From positions 62,001-126,000 of the forward strand of contig JALVZQ010000005.1 in the NCBI GenBank assembly GCA_027037535.1: DNA of 64,000 nt, in the 5' to 3' direction. The notes under the pieces were generated by a model, which worked only from the letters and a program-made list of their open reading frames with translations, ran no database searches and was not told the DNA's origin. The stretch's first letter is position 1. Each line of letters begins with the position of its first letter. Made by a program: the position numbers and the translations under genes. Origin of the DNA: Acidilobaceae archaeon (GTDB taxonomy: Archaea; Thermoproteota; Thermoprotei_A; Sulfolobales; Acidilobaceae). This document shows, one piece after another, positions 17,907-35,957 of the stretch.

Positions 17907-19214
17907 TTGCTACATGGTTTTGTAGTTATCCGTAGGGCTACTGTCTCCCTAATACTATTACTAGTCCTACTAACAATACTAGGAACACAAACAATACACA
18001 CACAAGCCCTACTAACCACACAACCACCAAACACAACACTATGGGAGAGCGAGGACCTCGGCACCGGGGTATTGAGTGTTGCGTGGAGCCCAGACGGCGA
18101 CAAGATAGCAGCCGGCACCTTGGACGGCAAGGTCGTTGTTTTGGATGCCAGTAATGGTTCGATACTGTGGGAGAGCCAGGACCTCGGCGGCGATGTATAT
18201 AGTGTTGCGTGGAGCCCAGACGGCGACAAGATAGCAGCCGGCGGAGATTTCCGCAAAGTCATCGTGTTGGATGTCGGCACCGGCACAGTATTGTGGCAAA
18301 AGGACCTCGGCGGCGATGTAGAGAGTGTTGCGTGGAGCCCAGACGGCGACAAGATAGCAGCCGGCACCAGGTCTAATAGAGTCATCGTGTTTGATGTTTC
18401 TTTTGGTGTTTTTCGTATTTCAGGTTTGCCTGGTACTGTTATAGTGGTTCAGGGCACAGGAGGCACAGGCAACTACACAATACCAAGCCAACAAACCCTA
18501 ACCCTATACGCATCGCCAGGCAACTACACAATAACATACACACTACCAAAACCACAAAACTACATAGGAGATCCGGATTTCTTGAGGGGTTCATTTAGTA
18601 TTAGTATGGTGGTTGAACGTGTTTCTGTGATTGAGGTGCCTGGGTATAATGAGTTGCTGAGTGTTTTGTCTGTTAGTTCTTCTGGGTTAAACGTTAATGT
18701 TACTGTTTATTGGAGTGGTGGTAGGCTCAATTTTGTTTTAGGATCTGGTGAGAACAAGTCATTGTACTTGGCTCCTGGAGAATATGAGGTTGTTGCTTAT
18801 CGTGATTCAATGCTTGGATTGGATCTGTATAAGCCTGTTGTTTTGAATGTTTCTGCTGAGGCTGGAGGTGTTTATAGTGTTGTTCTGGATCCGGGTATGT
18901 TCCATTATTCCACTGCTTTTTATGGGCTTATGGGTGCTATCGGTATTATATTGTTGTTGGTTGGTTTTGGGGTGTTCCAGGTTGTGAAGGGTAGGCTTGT
19001 TGTTGAGAGTGTTGAGGGTGAGCTTGTTAGGGGTGTTGGTGGTAGTTTGAGGGTTAAGGTTAGGAATCCTGGCTTGTGGAGGTGGAAGGGTGATCTCGTT
19101 GTTATTGTCGATGGTAGAGAGGTATATGTTAAGGATGTTAGCCTTGGAAAAAGGGAGGCTGGGACTCTGGGTGTTTATGTTGGGTGGGAGGAGCTGTATG
19201 GTAAGGCAAAATAG
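17907..19214 (+). CDS. Membrane-anchored WD-repeat surface protein, putative receptor subunit
   Basis: A 435-residue protein. A signal peptide (hydrophobic residues ~11-28) leads into three near-identical WD-type blades (SVAWSPDGDKIAAG at about residues 58, 100 and 141), then beta-rich domains with 'PGNYTI' and 'PGEYEV' segments like PEGA repeats, a membrane span near 335-355, and a ~75-residue cytoplasmic domain resembling a CARDB/Ig-like fold. Three blades cannot close a standard seven-blade propeller alone, so the array may have shrunk or the protein may oligomerise. The neighbouring kinase starts 35 bases downstream with similar Ig-like domains, so the two probably form a split receptor kinase. 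The start is TTG at 17907. Codon style switches abruptly several times along the gene. Confidence 0.7.
   Translation: MLHGFVVIRRATVSLILLLVLLTILGTQTIHTQALLTTQPPNTTLWESEDLGTGVLSVAWSPDGDKIAAGTLDGKVVVLDASNGSILWESQDLGGDVYSVAWSPDGDKIAAGGDFRKVIVLDVGTGTVLWQKDLGGDVESVAWSPDGDKIAAGTRSNRVIVFDVSFGVFRISGLPGTVIVVQGTGGTGNYTIPSQQTLTLYASPGNYTITYTLPKPQNYIGDPDFLRGSFSISMVVERVSVIEVPGYNELLSVLSVSSSGLNVNVTVYWSGGRLNFVLGSGENKSLYLAPGEYEVVAYRDSMLGLDLYKPVVLNVSAEAGGVYSVVLDPGMFHYSTAFYGLMGAIGIILLLVGFGVFQVVKGRLVVESVEGELVRGVGGSLRVKVRNPGLWRWKGDLVVIVDGREVYVKDVSLGKREAGTLGVYVGWEELYGKAK
18075..18365 (+). repeat. Three identical 42-base copies in the WD blades
   Basis: The same 42 bases, beginning AGTGTTGCGTGG and ending GCAGCCGGC, occur at 18075-18116, 18201-18242 and 18324-18365, spaced 126 and 123 bases apart. 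Exact identity at the DNA level in a coding repeat points to recent duplication or gene conversion, so the number of blades may vary between strains. Confidence 0.9.
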
Positions 19215-19248
19215 TTGAGGTAATTATGGAGTATGATAAGGAGGGTGT

Positions 19249-21798
19249 ATGCGCGTGGCTAGATATATTGATGATGACGAGATAGGGTATGGGTTTAGAA
19301 CCTTTTTTATAGATAGGCCCCGTAAGTTGTCCGGGGGTCGGACCGATAATAATAGGAGTGGTATGGTGGAGGTAAAGGCTGGTGCTGGTAGGAAGCTTAA
19401 GAGTTTCTGGATCCCGGTCCGTGATCCTGTTGTGAAGTTGAGGGTTGTGCCTGGTTCTGGGACCGCGTTTCCTGGCGAGACGATCAGGGTGCCTCTCTGG
19501 ATTGTTTATGAGGAGGGTGATCCAGATAGGATACGTGTAGATGTGTTGATAGATGATGAGAAGATAGGTTCATATGATCTTGGGAGGAAAACAGAGTCGA
19601 AGCTAACGGTCCAGGTGGGACCGGGAGTGCACGAGGTCAGGGTTCATGAGCCTCTCTCCAGAACCGTAGTGCGTGGAGTTTTAAAGGTTGACCGGGCTAG
19701 ACCTAGTGTTCGTGTTGCTGGTGTTGAGGGTAGAATCGAGTATCCTAGGGGTGGGAGTGTCTTTCTTGTGTTGAGTGTTGAGCCTTCTTCTTCGAGGATT
19801 AGCGGGGTCGAAGTCGTCAACGTGTCTGGAGCTAGTGTCCGGGTTGAGCGAGTTGTTGATAATCGTGTTGGGCTGGTCGTGGTTGATCCTAGTCCTGTAT
19901 TTTCTGCCAGGTTTACGCTTAGGGTCTTCATTGATAGTGTGGATGGTGTTAGGGATGTTGTCGAGGTGGATACCGAGATCCCTGTGGTGTTGAGCGAGGA
20001 TCATGCTAGAGCATGGGAGAGGAAAATACTAGAGATGCTTGAGAGCATGAATTCTTCTGCTTTGACTGAATGGATCAACAGGGCTCGGAGTCTTCTTGAA
20101 AAATGTAAAAGTACTGTTGGTAGACTTGGTTTTGATTGTAGTAAATTGGAGGAAGCGCTGGATAAGGCCCGTAAAGAGTTAATGATGTTTGGGAAGAAAC
20201 TAGATAAGGCTATCGAGCTAGCAAGTAAAAATAATTATAGTGAGGCCGTGGAATTATTATTAGATATCCTTAAGAGCTGTGAGACAACAAGGTATCGTGG
20301 CTCAGAGACGTGCGAGCTTATAGGTGAGAAAATTCAAGAGGTTCTGAATAATGCTGCAGGCTTTATCGAGGAGCTGTATAAGGAGTCAAATTACGATGAT
20401 ATTCTTGCCGCTACCAATTATCTTCTAAGATTGTGTCAATTAGAAGTACCTGGAACAGGGAGAAGCTGTGGTATTATAGAGAGAACTAGAAGCTTGGTGG
20501 AGTCGATAGCTAAGTTATTGGGCGAGACTATTGAGCTTAAGGTTCCAGAACACCATGCTTCTAGAATTATCCGTGGCAAGATCCGAGTCTCTTACAGTGA
20601 GGGGAGTGAAGTCCTAGACGGTGTTAGAATAGATTTTACTCCTGCCAGTGGATATATACGTATTGATCCTAAGCCTGTTGTAGAATTACCTAGACTGATA
20701 CCAGGATCAGATTTCATTGTAGAGATCGTTATGGAGAGCCTTGTCAAGGGCCGAGTACCTATACCATACAAGGTTTGCCATAGTAACTATTGTGTGGAGA
20801 AAATAACTTATACCGCGGTAGGCATGCCGGTAGCTTCTGTAGGTGTCTTGTCTAAGAGTATAGAGGACTATGTTGGTAGAGCAGTGTATGGGTTACGCAG
20901 TCTTAAACCAGAACAGCTAAGACCAAGAAGAGTCTCTAAACCTTTCAAGCTAGGAGAATATACTTGTTCGGGTATTCTAGGAGAGGGAGGCTATGCTATC
21001 GCATTGCTTTGCAGTGACTCGGCGGGAATCAATGTTGTTGTAAAACTTCCCTTTGAGGCACTGCCATTACTTTATGGAAGCGAGTTCGACACCGTCAGAT
21101 ATTCTCTAATGAAAAGACACGTAGAGGCTTTTGATAGAGAGGCTAAAATACTATCACGTTTAAGCCATCCTAACATCATTAAGGTCCTCGATCATGGAGT
21201 CGAACCTATGCCCTACCTAGCATTCGAATTCTGCGAATACGGCGATCTAAAACGATTAATGTCTAAAGTAGGAAAACTTGATGTAAAAACAGCACTAGAA
21301 ATAATGATACCTATAGGTGCAGCCCTTGCATACGGTCATGAACAGAGAGTTCTCCACTTAGACGTGAAGCCGAGCAACATACTTATAACAAGGGAGCTGA
21401 TACCTAAACTATCAGACTATAATATTGCTAAGGCCATGGCAACTATCTCGGCAAGGTCAAGGTCTAAGCTGGAAGGAGGAGGATACACGCCTGGCTTCGG
21501 GGCTCCAGAGCAACTCAACCCAGCGCTGCCAAAACCGGGTCCCTACAGCGATATATTCAGTCATGCAGCAACACTATACTATCTCATAACAGGGACCTAT
21601 CCCTATCCACTCGAAGAGTGGAGAACAAGCCTCTTCAGAGACGACCATAAGCCTACACCGGTCTCAAAACACGTTACAGGCATACCAAGAGACCTAGACC
21701 TAGTATTGGGAGAAGCCCTAGCAATACACCCTAATGAAAGACCGCAATCAATGAGAGAATATATCCAACAACTAGTCGAAATACACGCCAGACTCTAA
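19249..21798 (+). CDS. Eukaryotic-like Ser/Thr protein kinase, multidomain
   Basis: An 849-residue protein without obvious membrane spans. Residues ~50-245 form two or more Ig/CARDB-like beta domains, ~255-420 a helical region with paired Cys, ~430-530 another beta domain, and ~565-845 the kinase. The kinase has a Gly-rich loop GEGGYA (from Gly578), lysine 599, catalytic HLDVKPSN with Asp705, the DFG equivalent DYN at 723-725, and a GAPEQ activation-loop end. Catalytic residues are kept, so it is likely active, although Gly of DFG is replaced. It follows the WD-repeat membrane protein by 35 bases, which probably recruits it to the membrane. The GTG/ATG choice around 19249 is not critical. Coding base use drifts from G/T-rich at the 5' end to A/C-rich at the 3' end. 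Confidence 0.85.
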   Translation: MRVARYIDDDEIGYGFRTFFIDRPRKLSGGRTDNNRSGMVEVKAGAGRKLKSFWIPVRDPVVKLRVVPGSGTAFPGETIRVPLWIVYEEGDPDRIRVDVLIDDEKIGSYDLGRKTESKLTVQVGPGVHEVRVHEPLSRTVVRGVLKVDRARPSVRVAGVEGRIEYPRGGSVFLVLSVEPSSSRISGVEVVNVSGASVRVERVVDNRVGLVVVDPSPVFSARFTLRVFIDSVDGVRDVVEVDTEIPVVLSEDHARAWERKILEMLESMNSSALTEWINRARSLLEKCKSTVGRLGFDCSKLEEALDKARKELMMFGKKLDKAIELASKNNYSEAVELLLDILKSCETTRYRGSETCELIGEKIQEVLNNAAGFIEELYKESNYDDILAATNYLLRLCQLEVPGTGRSCGIIERTRSLVESIAKLLGETIELKVPEHHASRIIRGKIRVSYSEGSEVLDGVRIDFTPASGYIRIDPKPVVELPRLIPGSDFIVEIVMESLVKGRVPIPYKVCHSNYCVEKITYTAVGMPVASVGVLSKSIEDYVGRAVYGLRSLKPEQLRPRRVSKPFKLGEYTCSGILGEGGYAIALLCSDSAGINVVVKLPFEALPLLYGSEFDTVRYSLMKRHVEAFDREAKILSRLSHPNIIKVLDHGVEPMPYLAFEFCEYGDLKRLMSKVGKLDVKTALEIMIPIGAALAYGHEQRVLHLDVKPSNILITRELIPKLSDYNIAKAMATISARSRSKLEGGGYTPGFGAPEQLNPALPKPGPYSDIFSHAATLYYLITGTYPYPLEEWRTSLFRDDHKPTPVSKHVTGIPRDLDLVLGEALAIHPNERPQSMREYIQQLVEIHARL

Positions 21799-21814
21799 AA
21801 TACATGCAAGACCA

Positions 21815-23536
21815 TTAACTGTATCTTGCGAGGAGGCCTCGGAGAAGCCTCGAAGCCTCTTCACTGCTAATCCTCTCAATAGGATCCACCCTCATCATAC
21901 TCTCCAAGACACTCCTCACATCATCCTCCTCAACAAGCCCCAAGGCTTCCTCTAGTAGATCATCGGCCTCTGATCCATCGACTACTTCTCCTGTTAATAG
22001 GTAGAGGAGGAGGTTGCCCAACTGGTACACGTCTATCCTGTTCTCTAACCCCTTACTCTTGGCCCTGTGCTTGAGCTCCCAGAATACCTGTTCTGGAGCC
22101 ATCCATCCAGGCGTGGCGTGGACCCAGGAGGACTTCTCGGTGGAGGCGGAGAGTAGCCTCACGATCCCGCTAAAGTCGCCTAGCTTAGGCGTATTCTCCT
22201 TCACAAACACGTTCCCAGGCTTAATATCTCCATGCACGAGGCCACGACTATGAATATACCGGAGAGCATCCCCTAATACGCTGCCAATCACTAGGACGTC
22301 TCTCAGACTTGGTTCCCAGCCATTGTCAAGCTGCCACCGTAATGAGCCCTGATCCGCGTACTCATAAACCATAACCGGTGCAATACGAGAAAATGCCAGA
22401 AGTCTAAGGATACCGGAATGCCCAGGCCTCATCAGGCCCCAGACAGCTTCGACCCTCCTCCAATAGCCTCGGAGAACCCTCTCACTAATGCTAGGAGGAA
22501 CACCTCCATGCTCAAGCCAGCCCCTATACTCCAAGGGAAGCTTGACTACGACCTGCTCGTTGCTCCTCGAGCACTTATATGCACAGCCCCAGCCCCCGCA
22601 GCCAAGGAGACAACAACTCCATAAGCCCTCAAAACCATGTAGATCCCTAACAAGAGTGTCCAGAGATACACTATATTCCTCCCCAATACTACACCCGTAT
22701 CCAGGCACCAATGTATCTGAGAGCCTTAAACCAACGATATCTTTTGACTCAGTGCCCGATACCGGTAGCGTCGTAGGATAGAATTGGACTTTATACTTGG
22801 ATTGCCAAGTATTGGCTGTGGAAGGCCTTGCGGCAATTACTACTGGGATCTCGAAAAACAATCCTCCATAGGCTTCTAATCTAGCATGTAACCTTACATT
22901 GAGCGGGACGTCTCCCGCATTCTTAGGCTTAACAGAGACCCTTAACTCTATACATTTATCGGGGTTGACGAACTTTCCCAGTCCTTCGACCACCCGGCAC
23001 TCTGCGAGATCACATTCGAATCCCTCTACACTGAAGGGTACAATCGAACCGTTGCAGATCCTCGCAGTACCAAGCCTATACAAGCCTTCGATAAAATCCC
23101 CCTGTATTTCTAAACTGGTGCTTTTCTCTAGATATTCTGCAATACTGCTATTATGGGATCTCCACTCGTTTAACGCTTTGGGAAGAACCGTTAAGAGATC
23201 CCATCCCGAATAGTACTTGAATAGTATTCTTAATAAGGCCAGTAGCTCCTTTGTTTTTTCTCCCCATAATCCATTTATCACATTGGATAAACCTTGTAGA
23301 AATCCAGTAACCATAATAACGCTTATGTTAATTATTTTAACAAAGATCCGCCTAAAGAAACACCATGGCCTCTTCGCCAACCGAGAAACACCACCAATGT
23401 ATTTAAAAGGATTTCTCCCGTGAGCTATTCTGTATCGGGCATCCCTTTTTTGATACATATTTTTCGGAATAGGCTGATTGTTGCGTCCTTTGTTTTTCCA
23501 TGTTGGACCCTTTCTCTTTATTTTCTTACGGTTCAC
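21815..23536 (-). CDS. Eukaryotic-like Ser/Thr protein kinase with Cys-rich glycine loop
   Basis: Up to 573 residues. The kinase domain (about 305-570) has an unusual Gly-rich loop, CCLLGCGGWGCAYKC at residues 308-322, with five Cys; then VVVKLP with the ATP-binding lysine, HGDIKPGN with Asp437, and DFS (Asp454-Ser456) instead of DFG. N-terminal to it is a beta domain with paired Cys and, before that, helices. The first ~74 residues are very basic with a possible membrane anchor and may not be translated; ATG at 23314 is an alternative start. It is convergent with the previous kinase (16 bases between stops) and lies 24 bases downstream of the FHA gene, probably in the same transcript. It shares the Cys loop, including 23 identical bases, with the receptor kinase at 29700. 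Confidence 0.82.
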   Translation of the reverse strand: MNRKKIKRKGPTWKNKGRNNQPIPKNMYQKRDARYRIAHGRNPFKYIGGVSRLAKRPWCFFRRIFVKIINISVIMVTGFLQGLSNVINGLWGEKTKELLALLRILFKYYSGWDLLTVLPKALNEWRSHNSSIAEYLEKSTSLEIQGDFIEGLYRLGTARICNGSIVPFSVEGFECDLAECRVVEGLGKFVNPDKCIELRVSVKPKNAGDVPLNVRLHARLEAYGGLFFEIPVVIAARPSTANTWQSKYKVQFYPTTLPVSGTESKDIVGLRLSDTLVPGYGCSIGEEYSVSLDTLVRDLHGFEGLWSCCLLGCGGWGCAYKCSRSNEQVVVKLPLEYRGWLEHGGVPPSISERVLRGYWRRVEAVWGLMRPGHSGILRLLAFSRIAPVMVYEYADQGSLRWQLDNGWEPSLRDVLVIGSVLGDALRYIHSRGLVHGDIKPGNVFVKENTPKLGDFSGIVRLLSASTEKSSWVHATPGWMAPEQVFWELKHRAKSKGLENRIDVYQLGNLLLYLLTGEVVDGSEADDLLEEALGLVEEDDVRSVLESMMRVDPIERISSEEASRLLRGLLARYS

Positions 23537-23560
23537 TCTGGATTAACCCTCTTTTTGATT

Positions 23561-24544
23561 TTATTGTGTTGCATGTTTTACTATTTCTAATAGTTGCAGT
23601 ATCTGTTTCTTTGTTTTTTCTTTATGGAGTGTTATTGGCTCGTTGATTAGTATTTTCAGGCTGTTATAGATTGACATGGCTTGTGGTCCTAGTTTTTCTA
23701 ATAGTTTCTTGTTTTCTTCTAGTTCTAGGCGTTTGAATTGTGCTCTTGCTTGTTCTGGGTCTCTGTCTAGGAGGACGTATAGGTTGTATAGTATTCTTTC
23801 TATTCTATGGTAGGATAGTTTTTCTTGTTGTTTTTCTTGTTGCTGGCTTAGTTGTTGGTATATTTTTTCTACTACTATTTTGAGCTCTGATATTACGCCT
23901 AGTTCTTCTCGTTTTAGTATTATTATGTCTTGGTTCTGTGCGGCTGCTAGTACTATTTCCTTGTCTTCTCCTAGGTCTACTGATTGTTTTACTAGGCCTT
24001 TCTCTTCTAGTGCGTCTGCTACTAGTTTGGGTAGCCTTACTATTGATCCTGGACGTATGGTTATTGTTGTTTCTTCTCTTTCCCTTATTGCTAGCGTGAA
24101 TGTTGGGCCTAGGCTGGTTAGTTCTATTGTGATGCTCCGTGGATTATCTAGGGGGACTACGACTTCTTCTCCTGGGCCGATTACGCGGCCGTCTATTATT
24201 GTTGGGTTCTTGGCGCCTGTTCCCATTGGGCCATGGTTTTTTATTATGAGCTTGTCTCGTAGTGGGCTTACCTGGATCATTGTGTCTAGTCTTGAGACTA
24301 CCAGGGCATCGTATCCTGTATAGTATGGCTTGGCCCCGGGATCGTCCGGTATAATGTATATTCCGTAGGGGGAGAGGTCTGGGTTTTCTAGTATATGTTT
24401 GTAGGTGGGTCTTCCAATATAGTATTTTATGCCTGGTTCTAGGGGGTACTCGTGGAGTCTCCCTTGTGCCTGCCATATTAATACTGCTTCCTTCACTGCC
24501 CTTATCCCCGCCCGTCCCATTGGGCCTAGTGGGTGGCCGCCCAC
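23561..24544 (-). CDS. FHA-domain protein
   Basis: About 327 residues. Residues ~35-150 fit a forkhead-associated phosphothreonine-binding domain: YYIGRP (first conserved Gly-Arg), LVVSRLD (Ser-Arg; the usual His is Asp), IIKNHGPMGTG (Asn-Gly and Gly-Thr) and IDGRVIGPGEEVVV. A middle segment (~175-210) is beta-rich, and the C-terminal ~120 residues are helical and charged with a Gln-rich linker. FHA domains read phosphothreonines made by Ser/Thr kinases, and three such kinases flank this gene. GTG at 24544 overlaps the AAA ATPase stop; ATG at 24520, 6 bases after that stop's last base, is an equally good start. Coding strand is A/C-rich. Confidence 0.75.
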   Translation of the reverse strand: MGGHPLGPMGRAGIRAVKEAVLIWQAQGRLHEYPLEPGIKYYIGRPTYKHILENPDLSPYGIYIIPDDPGAKPYYTGYDALVVSRLDTMIQVSPLRDKLIIKNHGPMGTGAKNPTIIDGRVIGPGEEVVVPLDNPRSITIELTSLGPTFTLAIREREETTITIRPGSIVRLPKLVADALEEKGLVKQSVDLGEDKEIVLAAAQNQDIIILKREELGVISELKIVVEKIYQQLSQQQEKQQEKLSYHRIERILYNLYVLLDRDPEQARAQFKRLELEENKKLLEKLGPQAMSIYNSLKILINEPITLHKEKTKKQILQLLEIVKHATQ

Positions 24545-25755
24545 TCCTGGTATCGGCGTATGTCTTCGGGGGTTATTGGGGGTTTTACTTTTTCTAGGGC
24601 AAGGAGTATTTCTTCTCTCTTTATAGGTGATATACGGTATCTAATGTTAGTGAGGCTGGATGGATCCTTTATTTCTGAGAGGCGCCTGTATATGTCTGGA
24701 TTAGAGCGGCGGAGCATCATCATTATTGCTTCACGACAAGCGTTCGATATGTCTCTCCCACTGTATCCCTCCGTCTTCTCCGCGAGCTCCTCGTATGTTA
24801 TGCCTTCCAGCTTGAAGCCTTTCATCTCGATGTTCAGCTTGAAGATGGCCTCCCTAGCCTCCTTATCGGGGAGAGGTACATAGATCCTCTTCTCGAACCT
24901 TGACAGTATTGCTTCGTCCAGTAGCCATGGCTTGTTCGTGGCTGCTATCACTATTACCGGCTTCTCCAGCTTCTTCGTCTTGAACCCGTCTAGCTCTGTG
25001 AGGAGTGTCTGTACTAGGCCGGAGGCTGCTTCTCTGCCAGAGTCTCTTTTCATCATGAGTGTCTCTACCTCGTCGAAGAAGACTATGCTGGGCGCTCTTT
25101 TCACGGCTAGCCTGAATATCGCGCTTATCATCCTCGGCGCGTCCCCCACGTAGCGGGAGAGCACACGGTCGACGCTCACGTTTATGAAGGTGGCCCCCAG
25201 CATGTTGCTGGCGGCCATGGCCAGCATTGTCTTACCGGTGCCTGGGGGCCCGTAGAGGAGGAATCGCCTAGGGGGGTCTACCTTGACCCCGGGATCCTCT
25301 GGTAGGGCCACGCTATAGAATATTGCTTCGACTAGGCTCTTCTTCACGTCCTCAAGGCCGGCTATGTCGTCCCATGTAACGTCTGCCCTAGTTATAAGGG
25401 TTTCTGCCTGCTTGTCGAACTCCGCGTCTAGCCCCTCGGATCCGCTTGTTTCTCTATGGGCTGCTCTCCTAGCCTGTGGGGGAGCTTGTTGTTTACCGGC
25501 TGGCACGGTCGGGATGGGCCTGATGGGTGGCTTGCCCTTGGAGAGCCTTTTTGCTAGGTCCTCGTATTCTCTGGCTAGGCTGAGGAGGTCTTTTTGGCCC
25601 CATTTACGGGCTTTTGCTAGTTCCCGGAGTAGTTCCGCTATTCTCCTTGCCTGTATGGATGCAGTATAGTAGTCTCCTTGTGAGAGTGATTTCTCCATGC
25701 GTTTCTTGGCTTTCCTAATCTCTTGGTTTAGGAATCCAGTATAGTCTATTGGTAT
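24526..25755 (-). CDS. Vps4/CdvC-type AAA ATPase with MIT-like N-terminus
   Basis: A meiotic-clade AAA ATPase of 390 residues from ATG 25698, or 409 if translation begins at an AUA codon at 25755. Walker A is GPPGTGKT, Walker B IVFFDEVE, and the arginine finger region is SRFEKRIY. The C-terminal helix (PITPEDIRRYQEW) is typical of Vps4 and katanin. The N-terminus (IRKAKKRMEKSLSQGDYYTA, then an ARRIAELLRELAKA helix) matches an MIT domain, which binds ESCRT-III tails, and its first helix starts upstream of the ATG. A strong AGGAGGTGAT sits just before the AUA and an in-frame stop lies before that. It is upstream of the FHA gene (overlap or near-overlap) and downstream of an ESCRT-III-like gene. 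Crenarchaeal CdvC is a relative; whether this is CdvC or a paralogue cannot be told here. Confidence 0.85.
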   Translation of the reverse strand: MPIDYTGFLNQEIRKAKKRMEKSLSQGDYYTASIQARRIAELLRELAKARKWGQKDLLSLAREYEDLAKRLSKGKPPIRPIPTVPAGKQQAPPQARRAAHRETSGSEGLDAEFDKQAETLITRADVTWDDIAGLEDVKKSLVEAIFYSVALPEDPGVKVDPPRRFLLYGPPGTGKTMLAMAASNMLGATFINVSVDRVLSRYVGDAPRMISAIFRLAVKRAPSIVFFDEVETLMMKRDSGREAASGLVQTLLTELDGFKTKKLEKPVIVIAATNKPWLLDEAILSRFEKRIYVPLPDKEAREAIFKLNIEMKGFKLEGITYEELAEKTEGYSGRDISNACREAIMMMLRRSNPDIYRRLSEIKDPSSLTNIRYRISPIKREEILLALEKVKPPITPEDIRRYQEWAATH

Positions 25756-25760
25756 GCTGG

Positions 25761-25770: not shown

Positions 25771-25861
25771 ATATATTTATGGTTGGAACCGTTATCTGCA
25801 GGGAAACATGTTCTCCGGTAGATCGAGCTTGTTTCCTCGTAATGTTAGACTTTACCTTATG

Positions 25862-26476
25862 CTAGATTGTCTCTTTTTCTTTCTCCTCTTCTTCGGGCTC
25901 TATTTTTACTGAGAGCTCTTCCTCTACTACTTCGGGTGAGAGCTCGCTCTTCTCCACTTTCTCCCATAGCTCTAGTATCTCTTTTGTTCCCTCGTCTACT
26001 TCTACTTGCATCGCCTCCCTGCCCAGTATCTCGTTTATCTTATCAATGTTTGTCTCGAAGGCCTTGTCCTCGAACTGAACATTGGATAGTGCCTCCATGA
26101 GTTTTTCGGGCTCGATGCTCTTTATCTTCTCCCATATACCTGTCTCCTTTAGCCTGGCCTCCCATTTTTTGAGCCTTATAAGATTGGATAATGCTCTCCT
26201 TTGCTTCATCATCCTGTTGTATTCGCGTAGCTTCATTTTTATCTCGGCGTCGAGATCCTTGATCTTCTCTGCTAGTAGGAGTTTTTCTACGTCGCTCTTA
26301 CCTATTCCCTCCTGGAAGAGCTCCTTCTTTTTCTTCTCTAGCTTCTGTATTTCTTTGCCTATTAGGCTTATCTGGTTCTCGATCCTTATCAGTTCACGCT
26401 CGAGCTCCTCGACTTTGACGCTGTCTATCCAGTCCTTACGGCCAAAAACCCTCTTGAACCTTCCTCCTATACCCAT
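25862..26476 (-). CDS. ESCRT-III-like helical protein (tentative)
   Basis: A 204-residue, almost fully helical protein. A short basic, Gly-containing head (MGIGGRFKRVFGRK) could bind membrane. Residues ~17-115 form a basic coiled-coil hairpin (ELERELIRIENQISLI, then KKKKELFQEG, then KIKDLDAEIKMKLREY). Shorter helices follow (~120-180), and the tail is very acidic with a Pro (SVKIEPEEEE). Basic hairpin, acidic tail and a neighbouring MIT-type AAA ATPase together resemble an ESCRT-III/CdvB protein, with the tail as a candidate MIT-interacting motif. Sequence similarity to Snf7 is not obvious by eye, so an unrelated coiled coil remains possible. The start is ATG at 26476, with GGGTGA upstream. 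Confidence 0.6.
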   Translation of the reverse strand: MGIGGRFKRVFGRKDWIDSVKVEELERELIRIENQISLIGKEIQKLEKKKKELFQEGIGKSDVEKLLLAEKIKDLDAEIKMKLREYNRMMKQRRALSNLIRLKKWEARLKETGIWEKIKSIEPEKLMEALSNVQFEDKAFETNIDKINEILGREAMQVEVDEGTKEILELWEKVEKSELSPEVVEEELSVKIEPEEEEKEKETI

Positions 26477-26502
26477 ACATGTTCACCCATGCTCTCTATA
26501 TT

Positions 26503-26573: not shown

Positions 26574-26580
26574 CTCCCAG

Positions 26581-27144
26581 CTATCCGCCCTCTATTATTC
26601 TCTGAAAAGCTTCTTTCGTTAGTTCCCTCTTCCTCCACCGATCCTCGAGTATTCTTAGGACGTCGTAGAGTGATTCGTCGGCGTCTCCCCGGTATAGTTG
26701 GTCGAGTATTTTTCCTAGGTTCTTGAGGGCGCCTTCCTCTTTTAGAGCGATTAGTTTTTCGACAGCGTTTATCCTTAGGTCGAGGAGGTCGTATTCCTCG
26801 TATAGGTCTTCTAGTTCTTTTTCTACTAGGCTGATCTGTCTCTTGAGTCTTTTCTTCTCCCAGTCGCTGGATGTTTTCTCTACCGCCTTCTTCAGGCGTT
26901 GGTATCTATTTTCGAGGGTTCTTATCCTGGTCCTTAGCTGGACTAGCCTAGAGTAGTCGCTGTCAAGCTCTATCTGGGCCTTGTTCTCCTCGCTCATAGT
27001 CTTCCTAAGAGCCCATGTTGTAAAGACAACTATGCTGGCCGCGAATCCCGCCACGCTGCTGTGGAGGTATCCTAGTGCTGGCAGCATCCTCTCATAGGCT
27101 TTCTCGAGGAGCTCCCGGGAGTCTAGCTGGTTTACGCTGGCCAT
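26581..27144 (-). CDS. Membrane-anchored coiled-coil protein
   Basis: A 187-residue protein. After ~25 residues comes one membrane segment (GYLHSSVAGFAASIVVFTTW, about 25-45), then a long charged coiled coil (about 55-135, with ENRYQRLKKAVEK and KRQISLVEKELEDLYEEYD) and a short helical C-terminus. There is no enzyme motif. It could be the membrane anchor or scaffold for the soluble coiled-coil and ATPase proteins encoded downstream. The start at 27144 lies 15 bases after the stop of the 600-residue protein gene, so these are co-transcribed. Confidence 0.7.
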   Translation of the reverse strand: MASVNQLDSRELLEKAYERMLPALGYLHSSVAGFAASIVVFTTWALRKTMSEENKAQIELDSDYSRLVQLRTRIRTLENRYQRLKKAVEKTSSDWEKKRLKRQISLVEKELEDLYEEYDLLDLRINAVEKLIALKEEGALKNLGKILDQLYRGDADESLYDVLRILEDRWRKRELTKEAFQRIIEGG

Positions 27145-27159
27145 CGTCCTCTACCCCTA

Positions 27160-28962
27160 TTATAGTTTGTCTTTCTCGTAGAAGAACGCTTTTGAGCCCT
27201 TATCGGATAATAGTACTTTGCCCAGTCCCTCTTCTTCTGCCTTGGAGACAGCTCTGGAGACTATTTCTAGATCCTCTCCTGTCGCCTCCATTATCTCGTC
27301 TAGTAGTAGGAATGGTGCTGCTGGACTGTTGATTAATGCCCTATCCTTGGCCTCGTCGGACGAGAGGTACTCTATTACTTTCCTTATCTTTTCTTCTGGG
27401 AGCCGTGGATCCGCTATGTGCTTATTGGCTATTGCTGCCTCGTCCCTAGTATTATAGTATAGTACTCCCCTAACCGGGTCCACGAGGTAGAGGGTTAAGT
27501 ATCCTGATGCGAAGTTTATCGATGAATCACTGCTCTCAACTAGTGCCTTAGCTTTTTCCGTGAAGCCTGTGGGGCTACTAATCACTAGTACATGGTAGTA
27601 TTCCTCCTTGCCCGCCTCCTGTATCTTGTTCTCCAGTATCTCCATTACTTCGCCGAGAGTGGCTGGCTTGTTGTCCCAGCCCTTCTCCTCGTAGGCATCT
27701 CTGTGTACTAGGGTTACCGCGTCTACTACGATGTCCTTCTTCTTGAATATTACTCCTTTTAGCAGTTGTAGCTGTACTCCTTTGCCCTGGGGTCTTCCCT
27801 CGCCGTGGATGCTGTAGAATATCTTCTTCGACCATTTAACGTTCCTAGACCCTCCCCTCACCGGATCATATATAACGGTGCCTCCTCCCAGCTTCCTGAG
27901 AAGCCTCTCTACGAGGGCGTTCTCGAGGGCCCATGCCTCGTCCCTGCTGACTAGGTTGCCCTCCACTCTTCCCTCTAGGCCTGACCTGAGCTCCTCCAGC
28001 TTCTCCTCTAGGGCCTCCTTCTCAGCCTTCAATACTATTATTGTAGACTTGTACTCGTTCAAGAGATCTTCTAACTCCTTAACCCTGGCCCTGAGCGCCT
28101 CTATCTCGGCCTCTATTATCTCCCGGGCATTAGACGACTCTGAATACTTCCTCTTCAATGATTCTAGCTCTTGCTCCTTCTCCGCAAGCTTCTTCTTGGC
28201 CTCCTCGAGCTCCTTCACGAGGCCCTCTATCTTATCGAGCGCTTTCTCCCTGGCCTCTAATGCTTCCTCTAGCGACTCGCTCGACGCTAGGAAGGGCTCT
28301 ATCTGTTGTACCTGCTTGCTTGACTCTTCTAGGATCCTTGAGGCCTCTCTCCTAGCTTCGCCGGCCTCTAATGCTTTCTTGACGGCCTCCTCGATCTCCT
28401 GTATGAATACTGTGAGGGGCTTCTTCTTAATGTACTTGACCACGGCCTCCTCAATCTTCTGCCTCCTCTCCTTATACTTGTCTGCGAGGGCTAGGGCAAG
28501 GGCCCCCATAAGGTTGGTCCACTTCGTGTCTAGCATGTGGTAGCCTCTCTCATAGTATTTCTTCACCATCTCGTAGACTTTTCCCTCCCTCCTCTCTATG
28601 AATTCAACAAGGTCATCCACGCTGAGGAAGTCTATCTCCTTTAGGTCCTCGAGGTCGAAGAGCACCTGGTACTCCTCCTCGGAGAACCTCCCAGTAACCT
28701 CCGGTAGCTCCTCCCCGTTCACCTTGAAGCTGGCTGCAAGCATTAACTGGGCAAGCCTATACTTGCCACGTATCAGTCTATCTATCTCTCTATCAAACCT
28801 GTACGCGCACTCCCTGATGTACCTGGAATACTGTGCCTTGATCTCGTTCCAGAACTCGAGACGCTCCTCGAAACTGTATCCTCGGGAGAGACCAGCTAGG
28901 TCCTCCCTTAGCACCAGGTCTACTAGTCCAAGGATACTCTCACGATCACATGTCTCCTGCAT
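27160..28962 (-). CDS. Large coiled-coil protein with unassigned C-terminal alpha/beta domain
   Basis: A 600-residue protein in three parts. Residues 1-190 are helical and charged. About 190-345 is a continuous coiled coil (repeats such as EELEEAKKKLAEKEQELESL). About 345-530 is an alpha/beta domain with GTVIYDPVRGG, IVVDAVTLVH, YYHVLVISSPTGF and LYLVDPVRGVLYY strands, reminiscent of a nuclease-like or Rossmann-like core. The last ~65 residues look like a winged helix (LLDEIMEATGEDLEIVSRAVSKAEEEG). I do not recognise the family. It overlaps the 176-residue gene upstream by 17 bases. It could be a cytoplasmic adaptor of the AAA/FHA set. Confidence 0.7.
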   Translation of the reverse strand: MQETCDRESILGLVDLVLREDLAGLSRGYSFEERLEFWNEIKAQYSRYIRECAYRFDREIDRLIRGKYRLAQLMLAASFKVNGEELPEVTGRFSEEEYQVLFDLEDLKEIDFLSVDDLVEFIERREGKVYEMVKKYYERGYHMLDTKWTNLMGALALALADKYKERRQKIEEAVVKYIKKKPLTVFIQEIEEAVKKALEAGEARREASRILEESSKQVQQIEPFLASSESLEEALEAREKALDKIEGLVKELEEAKKKLAEKEQELESLKRKYSESSNAREIIEAEIEALRARVKELEDLLNEYKSTIIVLKAEKEALEEKLEELRSGLEGRVEGNLVSRDEAWALENALVERLLRKLGGGTVIYDPVRGGSRNVKWSKKIFYSIHGEGRPQGKGVQLQLLKGVIFKKKDIVVDAVTLVHRDAYEEKGWDNKPATLGEVMEILENKIQEAGKEEYYHVLVISSPTGFTEKAKALVESSDSSINFASGYLTLYLVDPVRGVLYYNTRDEAAIANKHIADPRLPEEKIRKVIEYLSSDEAKDRALINSPAAPFLLLDEIMEATGEDLEIVSRAVSKAEEEGLGKVLLSDKGSKAFFYEKDKL

Positions 28963-29476
28963 GCCTCACATCCCCCAGGAGCCCTAGCTCCTCGACAAGA
29001 CTGGAAACAACTCTCCCATGGGCGGGATCGAAGCCCTCGACAAAAACCCTAATAATACTGCCCCCTCCACGGGGATACACGCTGATCCTGACACGCGCGT
29101 ATCCTCCACGAGGCCTAACAACATACTCCCTAACACCCCGGGTCTCGCTCACCAAGCCTCCCCGGAGCCGGGCCATGATAAGCCCAATAGCCCCCCATAC
29201 CTCCCTCTCCGGGAGACTAGTATATGCCTCGATAGTACTCCTCTTCTCCTCGACCTCCACATCAGGCTCTGCCAGCCTATAGATAGAGATCTTCTCCCTT
29301 GGAAGACGAGAATAGAGCTCCTCCACCAAGCGACTAACCATCTCTCTATCGCCCTCAAGCAAAAGAACCGTGCCAGAGGGCCGTACAGCCTTAACCTTAT
29401 CCTTGTACCTGTCAACCACGTATTCCAGCCTTTTACGCTCCGCCTCATCAGTATACTTCACTATCAACAAGTACAA
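28946..29476 (-). CDS. Uncharacterised protein, first gene of the AAA/FHA run
   Basis: A 176-residue mixed alpha/beta protein (MYLLIVKYTDEAERKRLEYV start; later RVRISVYPRGGG and IIRVFVEGFDPAHG). No known domain or catalytic motif is recognised; the two halves each look like a small alpha/beta unit. The start is TTG at 29476 with a purine-rich GGAAGGGG immediately before it. The 3' end overlaps the following coiled-coil gene by 17 bases. As the first of six closely packed genes it marks the promoter end of the run; the 220 bases upstream are A-rich and could hold that promoter. Confidence 0.6.
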   Translation of the reverse strand: MYLLIVKYTDEAERKRLEYVVDRYKDKVKAVRPSGTVLLLEGDREMVSRLVEELYSRLPREKISIYRLAEPDVEVEEKRSTIEAYTSLPEREVWGAIGLIMARLRGGLVSETRGVREYVVRPRGGYARVRISVYPRGGGSIIRVFVEGFDPAHGRVVSSLVEELGLLGDVRHAGDM

Positions 29477-29699
29477 GCCCCTTCCAACCCCACTATTATC
29501 TAGTATCGGAGTATCCTAATAAATCTTCCGGAAACGGAGAAAAACAGAAACCCTCCAAAGAAGAGAATCAACAGAAAAATATGAAAAACGGAAAATCGTC
29601 TAAGAAACAATCCCATAACTCCACACATAACTATTCGTGAGGAAAAATAGGAAAACAACGAGGAACCAACTATAACTATCCAGATATTAATAGTTTTCA

Positions 29700-32600
29700 T
29701 TATAAAGATCCTGTGAGCCTAGAGTATATTTTTGCTAGCCTGTCTAGTACTATCTCTATTCCTGGCCTTTCGAGCGGGTCTTCTCTAAGCATAGATTCTA
29801 ATAGGCCGCGGAGATCCGCGTCCTCTACCTTGGATAGTCCCTCCCTAGCAACGGGGTCTCCTGCGTTTTCTCCGTCTATCGTGGAGCCTGTAAGTAGGTA
29901 GAGTAGGAGGTTTCCTAGCAGGTAGACGTCTATCCTGTTCTCGACCCCGTGTTGTTTTGCCCTTTCCCGTAGCTCCTTGTAGACTTGTTCTGGCGCCCTG
30001 AATCCTACGGTATAGCCTAGTCTGGAGAGTGGGTTATGGGTGGAGAGCAAGTGTACTATTCCGCTGAAATCTCCTAGCTTAGCAGTATTGTCGGATAAGA
30101 ATACGTTGTTTGGCTTAACGTCGCCGTGAACAATGCCCCGGCTGTGAATGTATCTCAGTGCCTCTCCTATCTGGAGCCCCACAAGCACTACGTCCCTAGG
30201 CGAGGGCTCCCAGCCATGCCATAGCTGCCATGCCAGTGTTCCCTGGTTAGCGTATTCATATACTAGTAGCGGTATCTTGGTAGAATATGCTAGCAGCCTT
30301 ACAATGCCGGGATGATTGAGTCTCTGGAGATCCTTAGCCCTAGAGATGATCTCTTCTAACAACTTGGAAGGTACAGTTGGAACATCGTCTCCTCCCTCGA
30401 TTACAGCTCGTAGATTAGAGGGGACCTTGAAAACGACATTCTCTCCATTACCGTTACTACACTTGTAGGCGCAGCCCCAGCCCCCGCAGCCAAGTAGACA
30501 GCAATTCCATGTTCTAGCATAGCCTGTCTCGGGAGCGAATAATACTTCTCCCCTCACCCGGTAGAACTCTTTACCTCGGCAACCATATCCTTCCCGAAGA
30601 CCAGTAATCTTCTCCTTGTAGGCCCAGCCCGCAACACCAGCTCCAATGTTAACGTCTAGAGTAGGGGGAAGAAGAACAGGCTGGCTACCCCCATCACTCT
30701 TATCTACCGCTACTTGTGGCGGGGCACTGCTCGGAGGCCTTAGACGCCTGGCCACCAGTACTATGCCTACACCGGCAACAGATGCCAAGGCAACAACCAT
30801 TAATACTGAAGAGATATTGCTCGTGTATCCCGTGTTTTCTCCCAGTAGCGTTGTAGATGTAGACTGTTCGCCTAAAGTACTCGTCCCCGTCTCCTGGGTC
30901 GCTGTCGTAGGCGATGGATACATTGGGGAAGTCGTCATAGAAGGCATGGGCATTGAGAGTATAACAGGGCTTCCCTGCTGCAGGGTCACAACGGTAGTGT
31001 TCACAAGAATATTGTCGGGTCCGTACACCCTAAGTATATATTCTCCAGGTACACCGTATATCGTTATACTGTCCCCTTCGGTAATGTTAAAGTTCTTGGA
31101 TCCTCCTGGCCATTCGACGACTAGGGAACCGTTAACCGGGGAGTTAACAACCAATACTCCCAGTCTAGACAAGAAATCACTCAAACCAACACTAACAAGA
31201 GAAGACTGCCCAGCAGACAAGGATACCTCTTGGCTAACCGGGTGATCCCGATAATAGCCCACTACATCTCCAACAACAGTCCCTGGAAGACTAACAGGAA
31301 TAGCATCCGCCACATAACTACCCGGCGCAGCCCATACGTCAATACTCGAGTTATCTACAACAACAGTATATTGGCCACTATCCCACGATAATGAAAACGC
31401 CACATAAACATTAGTAGCCTCGAGAATGAGTTGGCCGAGGAGCGTGGTTTGGTTTTCTACTAGATTTGTTAAATCAATTATTTCCATGTTCTCAGTATAT
31501 ATTGTTGTTGCATAGGTAGTGTTTAGTCCTATATCGGGCTGGATAGCTACTCTCACTAGGTATTCGCCGGGGTCAACATAAACATATCGAGGCTCTTCTC
31601 CAAGCACAAATGTAGCATTGTATCCTGTAACAGGATTATAAAGATTGACAGAACCCCTCAACCCCCCAATCATCCCCGTAGACGGAACAACAAAAATCGA
31701 AAAAGGACCAAGACCAAACACAAACACCCTTCCTATTTCCTGTGTACCATTAGTAATTGTTCCGCCATAAGCCAGGACTTTTCCTGACGGATTCCAAGAT
31801 GTTGTATAAGTAATGCTAGCAATTTTATCCATATAGATAATACTACCGTCCTGGACGTCAAACAAATATATATAACCTGTTCTTGTTGAGGCAGAAATCA
31901 TTGTTCCCTGGCTATTAAATTCGACGTCCATCACAGGGTTATTTAGATCTTGCGTACTCCAGATAACTGATCCTGTATTAGCATTCAATAAGTAGACTCC
32001 GTCGAACCAGCCGTAATAGGTGGAATCCACTCCAGCCACTATTAATTCTCCGTTCTTATTCCAATCAATACCATCTACCCATCCATTAAGATCCTCTGTC
32101 TCCCAAACAAGCTGGCCTGTATTAAAGTCAAACACATATACTTTACCCGGACTACTTGTACTAGCCGCTATCCTTTCGCCATCAGGGCTCCAAACGACAT
32201 CCCTAACCCAGTCACCAAGATTCTGACTCCTCCAGAGTAACTGCCAATTGCTTGTATCAAACACATCAATATAACCGAAGTCCCCGGTGACCGCTAACCT
32301 ACTACCATCAGGGCTCCAAGCAACGGAAAGAACATGCTGAGAGTAATCTCTGGTCCATATTATGCTTCCGTTTGAAGCGTTAAGAACAACTACCTGTTGC
32401 TCATAACTAACTGCCACCGCAATTCTACTACTATCAGGGCTCCAAGCTAGATAACCGATTCTTCCTAGGAGAGGACTCCTCCAAATAAGTGATCCATTTG
32501 CACCGTTAAATACATAGACATATCCTGAGCCAGTATCTGTTTGCCAGAAGCCGACTGCGATTCTACTTCCGTCAGGGCTCCAAGCTATTCTCCTAACTAA

Positions 32601-32744
32601 GACTCCTAGATCTTTGCTCCATACCGGTGTAAGCTGTACCTGTTGCTGAGCTATGGTTGGTATGGATACTACAAAACTGATAGAGGATATTAATGATAGG
32701 AGCATTAGTATGGCGCTAAGCTTATATCTGCTTGGACTATCCAC
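29700..32744 (-). CDS. Transmembrane receptor kinase: WD40 propeller - TM - Ser/Thr kinase
   Basis: About 1014 residues from GTG 32744, which follows AAAGGGG; a GTG 12 codons upstream is less likely. A signal peptide (residues ~8-30, ending IAQQQ) is followed by seven WD-type blades (AWSPDGSRIA and variants to about residue 325), which can close into one propeller outside the cell. Beta domains with PGEY repeats follow (~330-620), then a Ser/Thr-rich stalk, one membrane span (VLMVVALASVAGVGIVLVA, ~650-670) and a cytoplasmic kinase. The kinase has the Cys-rich loop CCLLGCGGWGCAYKC (748-762), Lys773, HGDVKPNN with Asp875, and DFS (892-894). This is a complete one-piece receptor kinase. The ligand is unknown; the FHA protein downstream is a plausible reader of its product. 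Confidence 0.88.
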   Translation of the reverse strand: MDSPSRYKLSAILMLLSLISSISFVVSIPTIAQQQVQLTPVWSKDLGVLVRRIAWSPDGSRIAVGFWQTDTGSGYVYVFNGANGSLIWRSPLLGRIGYLAWSPDSSRIAVAVSYEQQVVVLNASNGSIIWTRDYSQHVLSVAWSPDGSRLAVTGDFGYIDVFDTSNWQLLWRSQNLGDWVRDVVWSPDGERIAASTSSPGKVYVFDFNTGQLVWETEDLNGWVDGIDWNKNGELIVAGVDSTYYGWFDGVYLLNANTGSVIWSTQDLNNPVMDVEFNSQGTMISASTRTGYIYLFDVQDGSIIYMDKIASITYTTSWNPSGKVLAYGGTITNGTQEIGRVFVFGLGPFSIFVVPSTGMIGGLRGSVNLYNPVTGYNATFVLGEEPRYVYVDPGEYLVRVAIQPDIGLNTTYATTIYTENMEIIDLTNLVENQTTLLGQLILEATNVYVAFSLSWDSGQYTVVVDNSSIDVWAAPGSYVADAIPVSLPGTVVGDVVGYYRDHPVSQEVSLSAGQSSLVSVGLSDFLSRLGVLVVNSPVNGSLVVEWPGGSKNFNITEGDSITIYGVPGEYILRVYGPDNILVNTTVVTLQQGSPVILSMPMPSMTTSPMYPSPTTATQETGTSTLGEQSTSTTLLGENTGYTSNISSVLMVVALASVAGVGIVLVARRLRPPSSAPPQVAVDKSDGGSQPVLLPPTLDVNIGAGVAGWAYKEKITGLREGYGCRGKEFYRVRGEVLFAPETGYARTWNCCLLGCGGWGCAYKCSNGNGENVVFKVPSNLRAVIEGGDDVPTVPSKLLEEIISRAKDLQRLNHPGIVRLLAYSTKIPLLVYEYANQGTLAWQLWHGWEPSPRDVVLVGLQIGEALRYIHSRGIVHGDVKPNNVFLSDNTAKLGDFSGIVHLLSTHNPLSRLGYTVGFRAPEQVYKELRERAKQHGVENRIDVYLLGNLLLYLLTGSTIDGENAGDPVAREGLSKVEDADLRGLLESMLREDPLERPGIEIVLDRLAKIYSRLTGSL
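31131..31148. repeat. GTTAAC-CGGGGA-GTTAAC, copy 3 of the palindromic element
   Basis: The 18-base core is identical to the copy at 7803-7820, here inside the receptor kinase gene. The plus strand becomes A/C-rich to its right (to about 31430); its left side is not clearly G/T-rich. Confidence 0.5.

Positions 32745-33473: not shown

Positions 33474-35957
<2,484 letters not shown>

What the first reader, a model, noticed from the sequence alone, without database searches (positions are those of the whole stretch)
17907..32744. Receptor kinases, FHA reader, Vps4-type ATPase and ESCRT-III-like protein in one island
Three eukaryotic-like Ser/Thr kinases flank a minus-strand run of six tightly packed genes (176 aa, 600 aa coiled coil, membrane-anchored coiled coil, ESCRT-III-like, MIT-AAA, FHA) and a fourth kinase-type gene order is not seen elsewhere in the window. 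Established: FHA domains read phosphothreonine; MIT-AAA ATPases remodel ESCRT-III polymers. Inference: external signals on WD40 propellers drive kinases whose output, read by the FHA protein, controls a membrane-remodelling ATPase. I know of no described archaeal system with this exact composition.
Basis: partly seen in the sequence, partly recalled or inferred. Interest (0 to 1): 0.85.

Follow-up and report, generated by a model that had tools for sequence, protein, structure and literature searches.

The report
Kinase-linked second ESCRT system in crenarchaea
A heat-loving archaeon that already has the usual ESCRT cell-division machine carries a second, separate membrane-cutting ESCRT gene set packed together with three signalling kinases and a phospho-reading protein, which suggests that membrane remodelling there is switched by phosphorylation; the kind was known from other archaea but not recognised in this branch.

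Summary
Eight co-directional minus-strand genes encode a WD40 receptor kinase, a 176-aa protein, a 600-aa scaffold, a membrane-hairpin protein, an ESCRT-III-like protein, a Vps4-type ATPase, an FHA protein and a second kinase; a WD40 membrane protein plus a third kinase converge on them. The "undescribed system" claim is wrong in kind: the 176-aa, 600-aa, ESCRT-III and Vps4 genes are homologous and collinear with the euryarchaeal "Main" ESCRT systems (Makarova et al. 2024). In a Vps4 tree the crenarchaeal proteins form their own clade (100/99), sister to the sampled euryarchaeal ones and separated from CdvC (AU p=0.0016). The genome also carries CdvA, CdvB and CdvC, so this is a second ESCRT. 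The run recurs in 11 Sulfolobales/Desulfurococcales genomes. All four Hanks kinases and both FHA proteins found in this genome lie in two such loci. The second locus lacks Vps4, and its ESCRT-III lacks the tail conserved in Vps4-bearing loci, which makes that tail a candidate MIT-docking motif. Best reading: a receptor-kinase-gated, membrane-anchored ESCRT used for something other than division. Identity is well supported; the phospho-control step is inferred.

The parts
17907..19214 (+). WD40 membrane protein (435 aa): signal peptide (6-24), WD40 blades, TM helix (342-360), Ig/CARDB-like cytosolic part; likely sensor half of a split receptor
   Evidence: WD40 E 2e-15; hydropathy; a 912-aa WD40 protein lies upstream of the relative of the next gene in L130
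19249..21798 (+). Ser/Thr kinase 1 (849 aa, no TM; beta-rich and helical N-terminal part, kinase at about 560-845; VVVKLP, HLDVKPSN, SDYN motifs)
21815..23536 (-). Ser/Thr kinase 2 (573 aa; catalytic Lys, HGDIKPGN, GDFS present; weak TM candidate 64-82), last gene of the minus-strand run
   Evidence: 24 bp after the FHA gene
23561..24544 (-). FHA protein (327 aa): FHA domain (DNA about 24110-24439), second beta domain, C-terminal helical bundle
   Evidence: R45, S84 and N113 kept, canonical His replaced by Asp
24526..25755 (-). Vps4-type AAA ATPase, 409 aa from a probable ATA start; MIT domain about 25531-25755, AAA+ and Vps4-type lid
25862..26476 (-). ESCRT-III-like protein (204 aa): basic N-terminus, alpha1-alpha2 hairpin, short helices, acidic tail
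25907..25993 (-). Conserved C-terminal tail of the ESCRT-III-like protein (TKEILELWEKVEKSELSPEVVEEEL), candidate MIT-interacting motif; absent from Vps4-less loci
26581..27144 (-). Membrane-hairpin coiled-coil protein (187 aa): hydrophobic N-terminal segment then a two-helix hairpin; possible TM-anchored divergent ESCRT-III
   Evidence: profile probability 60-80% with pooled profiles, controls up to 6.5%; 2-4% with single-subfamily profiles; TM segment below the hydropathy threshold
27160..28962 (-). 600-aa scaffold: N-terminal helical domain, coiled coil, globular domain with YYHVLxxxSPTGFT motif, C-terminal winged-helix-like segment; counterpart of arCOG09748 of Main ESCRT loci
   Evidence: (E 2e-69 to the Thermococcus plasmid protein)
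28946..29476 (-). 176-aa protein, predicted ferredoxin-like plus TBP/helix-grip-like halves; counterpart of arCOG08177
   Evidence: (E 1e-38 to the Thermococcus plasmid protein)
29700..32780 (-). WD40 receptor Ser/Thr kinase (1026 aa): signal peptide, WD40 propeller, TM 659-677, kinase 763-1012 (VVFKVP, HGDVKPNN, GDFS)
   Evidence: a homologous WD40 kinase is directly upstream of the run in G099 (L031)

Best explanation
The island is a complete ESCRT system of the Main-like archaeal type, in a crenarchaeal branch of its own, coexisting with the Cdv division ESCRT. Shown by sequence: Vps4 with MIT, an ESCRT-III-like protein, and the two diagnostic Main-locus families (600 aa and 176 aa), conserved as a block with a membrane-hairpin protein, an FHA protein and Hanks kinases. 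Inferred: the 600-aa, 176-aa and hairpin proteins form a membrane-bound platform that nucleates the ESCRT-III polymer; Vps4 docks by its MIT domain on the conserved C-terminal tail of ESCRT-III and disassembles it; WD40-receptor kinases at the membrane phosphorylate Thr on themselves or on platform/ESCRT-III components; and the FHA protein bridges the phospho-mark to the ESCRT machine. Envelope signals would thus start or stop membrane budding, scission or repair. Phosphate removal would come from a PPP-type phosphatase rather than the PP2C of euryarchaeal loci.
For: Conserved block in 11 genomes. Homology and order shared with Thermococcus, Archaeoglobi, Methanosarcina and Methanomicrobiales loci. 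Vps4 tree places it with those and not with CdvC. CdvA, CdvB and CdvC are present elsewhere in the genome. ESCRT-III-like fold with S. islandicus CdvB as top PDB match. FHA fold. MIT by profile. All four Hanks kinases and both FHA proteins of the genome lie in two ESCRT loci. The ESCRT-III tail and Vps4 are lost together in type-2 loci. A PPP phosphatase, WD40 protein, kinase and FHA protein form one cluster in L130.
Against: No experimental data; phosphorylation targets are unknown. The window FHA domain is divergent (no Pfam hit, His to Asp), so pThr binding could be lost. The kinases are not adjacent to the run in every genome (none on the G087 contig; FHA 12 kb away in G195). ESCRT-III identity has no detectable sequence link to CdvB (profile probability 2%) and rests on a weak-E fold match (0.11) plus homology with published ESCRT loci. 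Sulfolobales and Euryarchaeota differ in accessory genes (hairpin protein and FHA against a second ESCRT-III and PP2C).
Confidence: 0.6

Rival explanations
1. Phospho-cargo sorting: the kinases mark membrane proteins, the FHA protein is an ESCRT-0-like cargo receptor, and the ESCRT buds the cargo out in vesicles. Phosphorylation selects what is sorted rather than whether the machine runs.
For: Proposed by Makarova et al. for Main and Halo_FHA systems (PMC10936438). The FHA protein has a separate C-terminal helical bundle suited to bridging.
Against: The kinases sit in the same operon or next to it and carry their own sensor domains, which fits regulation at least as well. No cargo genes are evident. 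The CdvA-like tail of the haloarchaeal FHA proteins is not detected here.
Confidence: 0.25
2. A conflict or stress-response island: sensor kinases trigger membrane remodelling on virus attack or envelope damage (release, sealing or suicide).
For: Patchy distribution (about 10% of the order; 2 further genomes of 300 sampled from the phylum). Relatives on plasmids. WD40, kinase, FHA and ATPase combinations recur in prokaryotic conflict systems (own knowledge).
Against: No nuclease, toxin or known defence domain in the run (Pfam and NCBIfam; PADLOC not run). The block is conserved in sequence and order across several families.
Confidence: 0.12
3. An auxiliary division system that backs up or replaces part of the Cdv machine.
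For: Same protein classes as CdvB/CdvC.
Against: The genome and all 15 genomes tested have CdvA; Vps4 is not CdvC-like; most Cdv-bearing relatives lack the island.
Confidence: 0.05
4. Unrelated neighbours: the kinases and the AAA/FHA run are adjacent by chance.
For: Kinases are absent from some short contigs that hold the run (G087, G138).
Against: 12 of 22 kinases within 10 kb of a p600 locus in five well-assembled genomes, 0.29 expected; kinase directly joined to the type-2 run in its complete loci. The tail probability ignores tandem kinase duplication.
Confidence: 0.02

Closest known systems
'Main' clade archaeal ESCRT systems (Makarova et al. 2024, PMC10936438), e.g. Thermococcales, Methanosarcina
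   Same: Vps4 with MIT, ESCRT-III, 600-aa and 176-aa families in the same order, linked membrane Ser/Thr kinases
   Different: Crenarchaeal Vps4s form a separate sister clade; one soluble ESCRT-III plus a TM-hairpin protein instead of two ESCRT-IIIs; FHA protein added; WD40 receptor kinases; no PP2C; coexists with CdvABC
Halo_FHA archaeal ESCRT systems (same paper)
   Same: FHA protein linked to Vps4, ESCRT-III and kinases
   Different: No CdvA-like C-terminal domain found in the FHA protein; Vps4 not grouped with the haloarchaeal plasmid Vps4s sampled, whose own class was not verified
Cdv (CdvABC) division ESCRT of Thermoproteota
   Same: ESCRT-III plus MIT-Vps4 logic
   Different: No CdvA in the island; Vps4 only 36% identical to the genome's own CdvC over 292 aa and outside its clade
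Arn phospho-regulatory network of Sulfolobus (ArnA FHA protein and kinases)
   Same: Archaeal Hanks kinases with an FHA reader
   Different: Arn regulates archaella and the DNA damage response (PMC10470591 and own knowledge); no ESCRT genes

Membership tests
Main-clade archaeal ESCRT | Vps4 ATPase with N-terminal MIT | tested here: met
   N-terminal domain homologous to euryarchaeal Main-locus Vps4 N-termini (98.4%); pooled profile to CdvC MIT 87%, E 4e-6, controls up to 3.4%; no direct Pfam MIT hit
Main-clade archaeal ESCRT | ESCRT-III gene | tested here: met
   99.8% profile match to euryarchaeal Main-locus ESCRT-III; PDB fold top hit S. islandicus CdvB, probability 0.95 but E 0.11
Main-clade archaeal ESCRT | arCOG09748 (helical, coiled coil, globular, wH) | tested here: met
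   Homologue at the same place in Thermococcus, Archaeoglobi and Methanosarcina loci; the arCOG number itself could not be looked up
Main-clade archaeal ESCRT | arCOG08177 (Cas2-like + TBP-like) | tested here: met
   E 1e-38 to the Thermococcus locus protein; folds not tested, arCOG number not looked up
Main-clade archaeal ESCRT | Vps4 inside the published Main clade | tested here: inconclusive
   Separate clade sister to the sampled euryarchaeal, haloarchaeal and Chlorohelix Vps4s; published tree members and File S1 not available
Main-clade archaeal ESCRT | Linked STK (frequent, not obligatory) | tested here: met
   Three kinases adjacent
Main-clade archaeal ESCRT | Linked PP2C phosphatase (frequent, not obligatory) | tested here: not met
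   No PP2C in the genome
Halo_FHA ESCRT | FHA protein with CdvA-like C-terminal domain | tested here: not met
   FHA present; C-terminal part against CdvA profile 0.6% (only 4 CdvA rows, one of them a short fragment)
Cdv division ESCRT | Vps4 of CdvC clade | tested here: not met
   AU p 0.0016 against grouping with CdvC
Cdv division ESCRT | CdvA in the same locus | tested here: not met
   CdvA is on another contig, C7:313836-314174
FHA domain | FHA fold and phosphothreonine contacts | tested here: met
   6 of 8 homologues match PF00498; model matches aprataxin, MDC1 and APLF FHA; Arg, Ser and Asn contacts kept; binding untested
Hanks Ser/Thr kinase | Kinase domain with catalytic Lys, HxD..N and metal-binding Asp | tested here: met
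   activity untested
ESCRT-III superfamily | Membrane-binding polymer disassembled by Vps4 | not testable with these tools
   needs biochemistry

The most novel reading that the evidence does not exclude
Thermoproteota hold a previously unrecognised ESCRT lineage that is gated by receptor kinases: nearly all Hanks/FHA phospho-signalling of the cell is devoted to it, one ESCRT-III is fixed in the membrane by a TM helix (the hairpin protein), and a derived type-2 version works without Vps4, having lost both the ATPase and the ESCRT-III docking tail.
Probability: 0.35. Interest if true: 0.78.

Novelty: new variant of a known kind. Interest (0 to 1): 0.62.

Why it matters
Current accounts say that ESCRT in the TACK archaea was reduced to the minimal Cdv division machine and lost its sorting partners (PMC10936438). 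Here a thermophilic crenarchaeon keeps an elaborate second ESCRT with sensor kinases and a phospho-reader next to Cdv. That makes three questions testable: whether archaeal membrane remodelling is controlled by external signals through phosphorylation, what archaeal WD40 receptor kinases are for, and whether complex ESCRT predates the split of the major archaeal groups. The natural Vps4-less, tail-less version gives a built-in test of the MIT-docking motif.

Tried and rejected
Pfam and NCBIfam on single window proteins gave nothing useful for the 176-, 204- and 600-aa proteins. PDB sequence search with the ESCRT-III-like and 176-aa profiles gave only coiled-coil or designed proteins. Direct MIT search in Pfam and PDB failed and was replaced by profile comparison. 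The 17-row scaffold alignment was too diverse for a collection scan, so the ESCRT-III alignment was used. Single-subfamily comparison of the hairpin protein with ESCRT-III failed (2-4%); pooled profiles gave 60-80%, so I treat this as suggestive only. Sequence comparison of the ESCRT-III-like protein with CdvB failed. CdvA-like tail of the FHA protein: not found. The AU test of a Sulfolobales+EuryMain clade (p 0.003) is uninformative because it left out the G084 row that sits with the Sulfolobales clade. The 'Oscillospiraceae' hit L068 was set aside as a misbinned methanogen contig.
Full report
WHAT IS THERE. The window is G000:C5:62001-126000 of a 1.65-Mb, 99.9% complete genome. A same-genus assembly (G138) has the same contig as a public 'Acidilobaceae archaeon' record (L033 and L062), and G087 of the same family matches an Aeropyrum sp. 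record (L034 and L063), so the source is a Desulfurococcales-type crenarchaeon (GTDB Sulfolobales). On the minus strand, in transcription order: WD40 kinase (1026 aa), 223 bp, 176 aa, overlap 17 bp, 600 aa, 15 bp, 187 aa, 104 bp, 204 aa, 106 bp, AAA, overlap 19 bp, FHA, 24 bp, kinase 573 aa. On the plus strand a WD40 membrane protein (435 aa) and a kinase (849 aa) converge on this run. The AAA gene most likely starts at ATA 25755 behind GGAGGTGAT; the orthologues L034, L036 and L037 start at the same place with ATG, GTG or TTG. The longer reading supplies the first helix of the MIT domain.

DOMAINS. Kinases: Pkinase E 9e-29, 1e-21 and 1e-26 with Lys, HxD and metal-binding Asp in place. Only the 1026-aa protein joins signal peptide, WD40, TM and kinase in one chain. 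The FHA protein has no Pfam hit itself, but 6 of 8 homologues match PF00498, best 1.9e-12. Its AlphaFold model (pLDDT 84) has FHA structures (aprataxin, MDC1, APLF; probability 0.99-1.00) among its best PDB matches. Arg45, Ser84 and Asn113, the usual phosphopeptide contacts, are kept; the structural His is Asp. The AAA protein is Vps4/Cdc48-like. Its N-terminal 80 residues match the same region of euryarchaeal Vps4s (98.4%); a pooled profile matches CdvC MIT domains at 87%, E 4e-6, over 70 columns, while coiled-coil controls give 0.1-3.4%. The 204-aa protein has a long alpha1-alpha2 hairpin and short C-terminal helices; in the PDB its best fold matches are S. islandicus CdvB, CdvB2 and CHMP2A-CHMP3 among other helical proteins, top probability 0.95 but E only 0.11. 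Its sequence is 99.8% probable kin of euryarchaeal ESCRT-III with no detectable sequence link to CdvB.

CONSERVATION. The block 176-600-hairpin-ESCRT-III-AAA(-FHA) recurs, wholly or up to a contig end, in G000, G099, G194, G138, G087, G005, G121, G195, G262, G129 and the genome of L064. The FHA gene follows the AAA gene in five of these; elsewhere it is divergent or upstream, and in G195 it is 12 kb away. The 600-aa family occurs in 21 of 214 genomes of the order. Outside the order, island-type Vps4 appeared in 2 of 300 genomes sampled from the phylum. It is therefore a patchy accessory system.

WHAT KIND IT IS. tblastn of the ATPase found a Thermococcus peptonophilus plasmid whose locus runs 172 aa, 607 aa, 198 aa, 201 aa, Ser/Thr kinase, AAA, PP2C. 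Profiles from the crenarchaeal genes hit these with E 1e-38, 2e-69, 1e-38 and 9e-29 (both ESCRT-IIIs) and 6e-110. Thermococcus, Archaeoglobi, Geoglobus, Methanosarcina and Methanomicrobiales loci show the same plan. This is the Main ESCRT clade of Makarova et al. 2024 (PMC10936438): Vps4, ESCRT-III, arCOG09748 (helical, coiled coil, globular, winged helix), arCOG08177 (Cas2-like plus TBP-like), often with membrane kinases and phosphatases; a Halo_FHA clade adds an FHA protein. My assignment to these arCOGs rests on homology, order and architecture; arCOG numbers could not be looked up, and the paper's supplementary tree was not available.

TREE. In a 57-row Vps4 tree the eight crenarchaeal island Vps4s form one clade (100/99). 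With the Sulfolobaceae-type genome G084 they are sister to euryarchaeal, haloarchaeal and Chlorohelix Vps4s (100/99 for the whole set). The 25 CdvC rows are a separate clade (100/100), and forcing island plus CdvC together is rejected (AU p 0.0016). The same genome has CdvA (C7:313836), CdvB (C7:314678) and CdvC (C5:151837), so the island is a second, distinct ESCRT. The paper describes most TACK archaea as having a minimal CdvA/B/C system that underwent reduction; its main text names none of Aeropyrum, Staphylothermus, Pyrodictium, Acidilobus or Ignicoccus.

LINK TO PHOSPHO-SIGNALLING. In G000 four kinases exceed the Pkinase cut-off: three in this island and one at C7:363300. The only PF00498 hit of the genome is at C7:361291. 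That second locus (L038) reads 600-aa homologue, hairpin, ESCRT-III, FHA, kinase: a 'type 2' system. In five well-assembled genomes 12 of 22 kinases lie within 10 kb of a 600-aa-family gene (0.29 expected), and all 6 such loci have at least one; tandem duplication of kinases makes the printed tail probability too small, but not the 6 of 6. No PP2C exists in G000. A PPP-type phosphatase sits between a WD40 protein and a kinase-FHA pair in L130, and G000 has one distant homologue at C8:92996.

VPS4 AND TAIL GO TOGETHER. Type-2 loci (G000 C7, G157, G257, G250, G195 C37, G182) lack the 176-aa and Vps4 genes in the sequence available. G157 (99% complete) has no island-type Vps4 anywhere. Their ESCRT-III proteins end before the segment EILELWEKVEKxELxPExVEE, which is present in all eight Vps4-type crenarchaeal loci checked and, in related form, in the first ESCRT-III of euryarchaeal loci. 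Six against eight loci is suggestive, not independent evidence for each, because three type-2 rows are from one genus. I infer that this tail is the MIT-docking motif. The hairpin protein may be a TM-anchored divergent ESCRT-III: pooled profiles give 60-80% over the hairpin (controls up to 6.5%), single-subfamily profiles do not, and it takes the place of one of the two ESCRT-III genes of euryarchaeal loci.

HOW IT MOST LIKELY WORKS. Shown: composition, conservation, ancestry, catalytic and phospho-contact residues. Inferred: platform (600, 176, hairpin) at the membrane, ESCRT-III polymer on it, Vps4 recycling through MIT and tail, kinases with extracytoplasmic WD40 sensors writing pThr marks, FHA protein reading them and switching the machine. 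The main rival uses the same parts for sorting phosphorylated cargo. Neither can be decided without phosphoproteomics and gene removal.

VERDICT. The claim of an undescribed kind of system is not right, but the crenarchaeal branch, its coexistence with Cdv, its WD40 receptor kinases and FHA protein, and the Vps4-less derivative were not found described in the text that could be searched. New variant of a known kind.

Noticed in passing
L052 and L057 (NZ_CP128401.1, Candidatus Chlorohelix allophototropha plasmid, Chloroflexota): A bacterial plasmid carries an ESCRT-III-like protein (210 aa, profile E 2e-15), a MIT-type Vps4 that falls in the archaeal Main/Halo set on a long branch, at least seven Ser/Thr kinases, PP2C and an FHA protein within about 35 kb: an archaeal-type ESCRT island in a bacterium.
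   Followed up: partly
L038 (G000:C7:357833-363541): Second, Vps4-less 'type 2' locus in the same genome: 600-aa homologue, hairpin, short ESCRT-III, canonical FHA protein, membrane kinase (cut by the contig end), next to a K+ channel-like gene.
   Followed up: yes
L044 (G137) and L048 (G002): Third variant: 600-aa homologue with a long TM-hairpin protein, a P-loop GTPase-like protein and a partner, plus FHA or WD40 proteins and very large kinases; no ESCRT-III and no island Vps4 detected. The 600-aa family may be a general signalling platform, not an ESCRT-only part.
   Followed up: partly
25753-25755: Probable ATA start codon of the Vps4 gene behind a strong Shine-Dalgarno sequence; orthologues have ATG, GTG or TTG there.
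   Followed up: partly
14732-17632: RtcB-like ORF of 966 aa with an apparent intein insertion (from reading the translation).
   Followed up: no
32805-33344: CYTH-domain protein (PF01928, 1e-31) next to the WD40 kinase, followed by Cdc48 at 33474-35648.
   Followed up: no
L068 (JAHDPQ010000008.1, 'Oscillospiraceae bacterium'): Contig carries Main ESCRT genes with the same profile scores and lengths as the Methanomicrobiales contig L069; almost certainly misbinned.
   Followed up: partly
L130 (G194:C190): WD40 protein (912 aa), PPP phosphatase (323 aa), kinase (842 aa frame) and FHA protein (354 aa) in one cluster: writer, eraser and reader together.
   Followed up: partly
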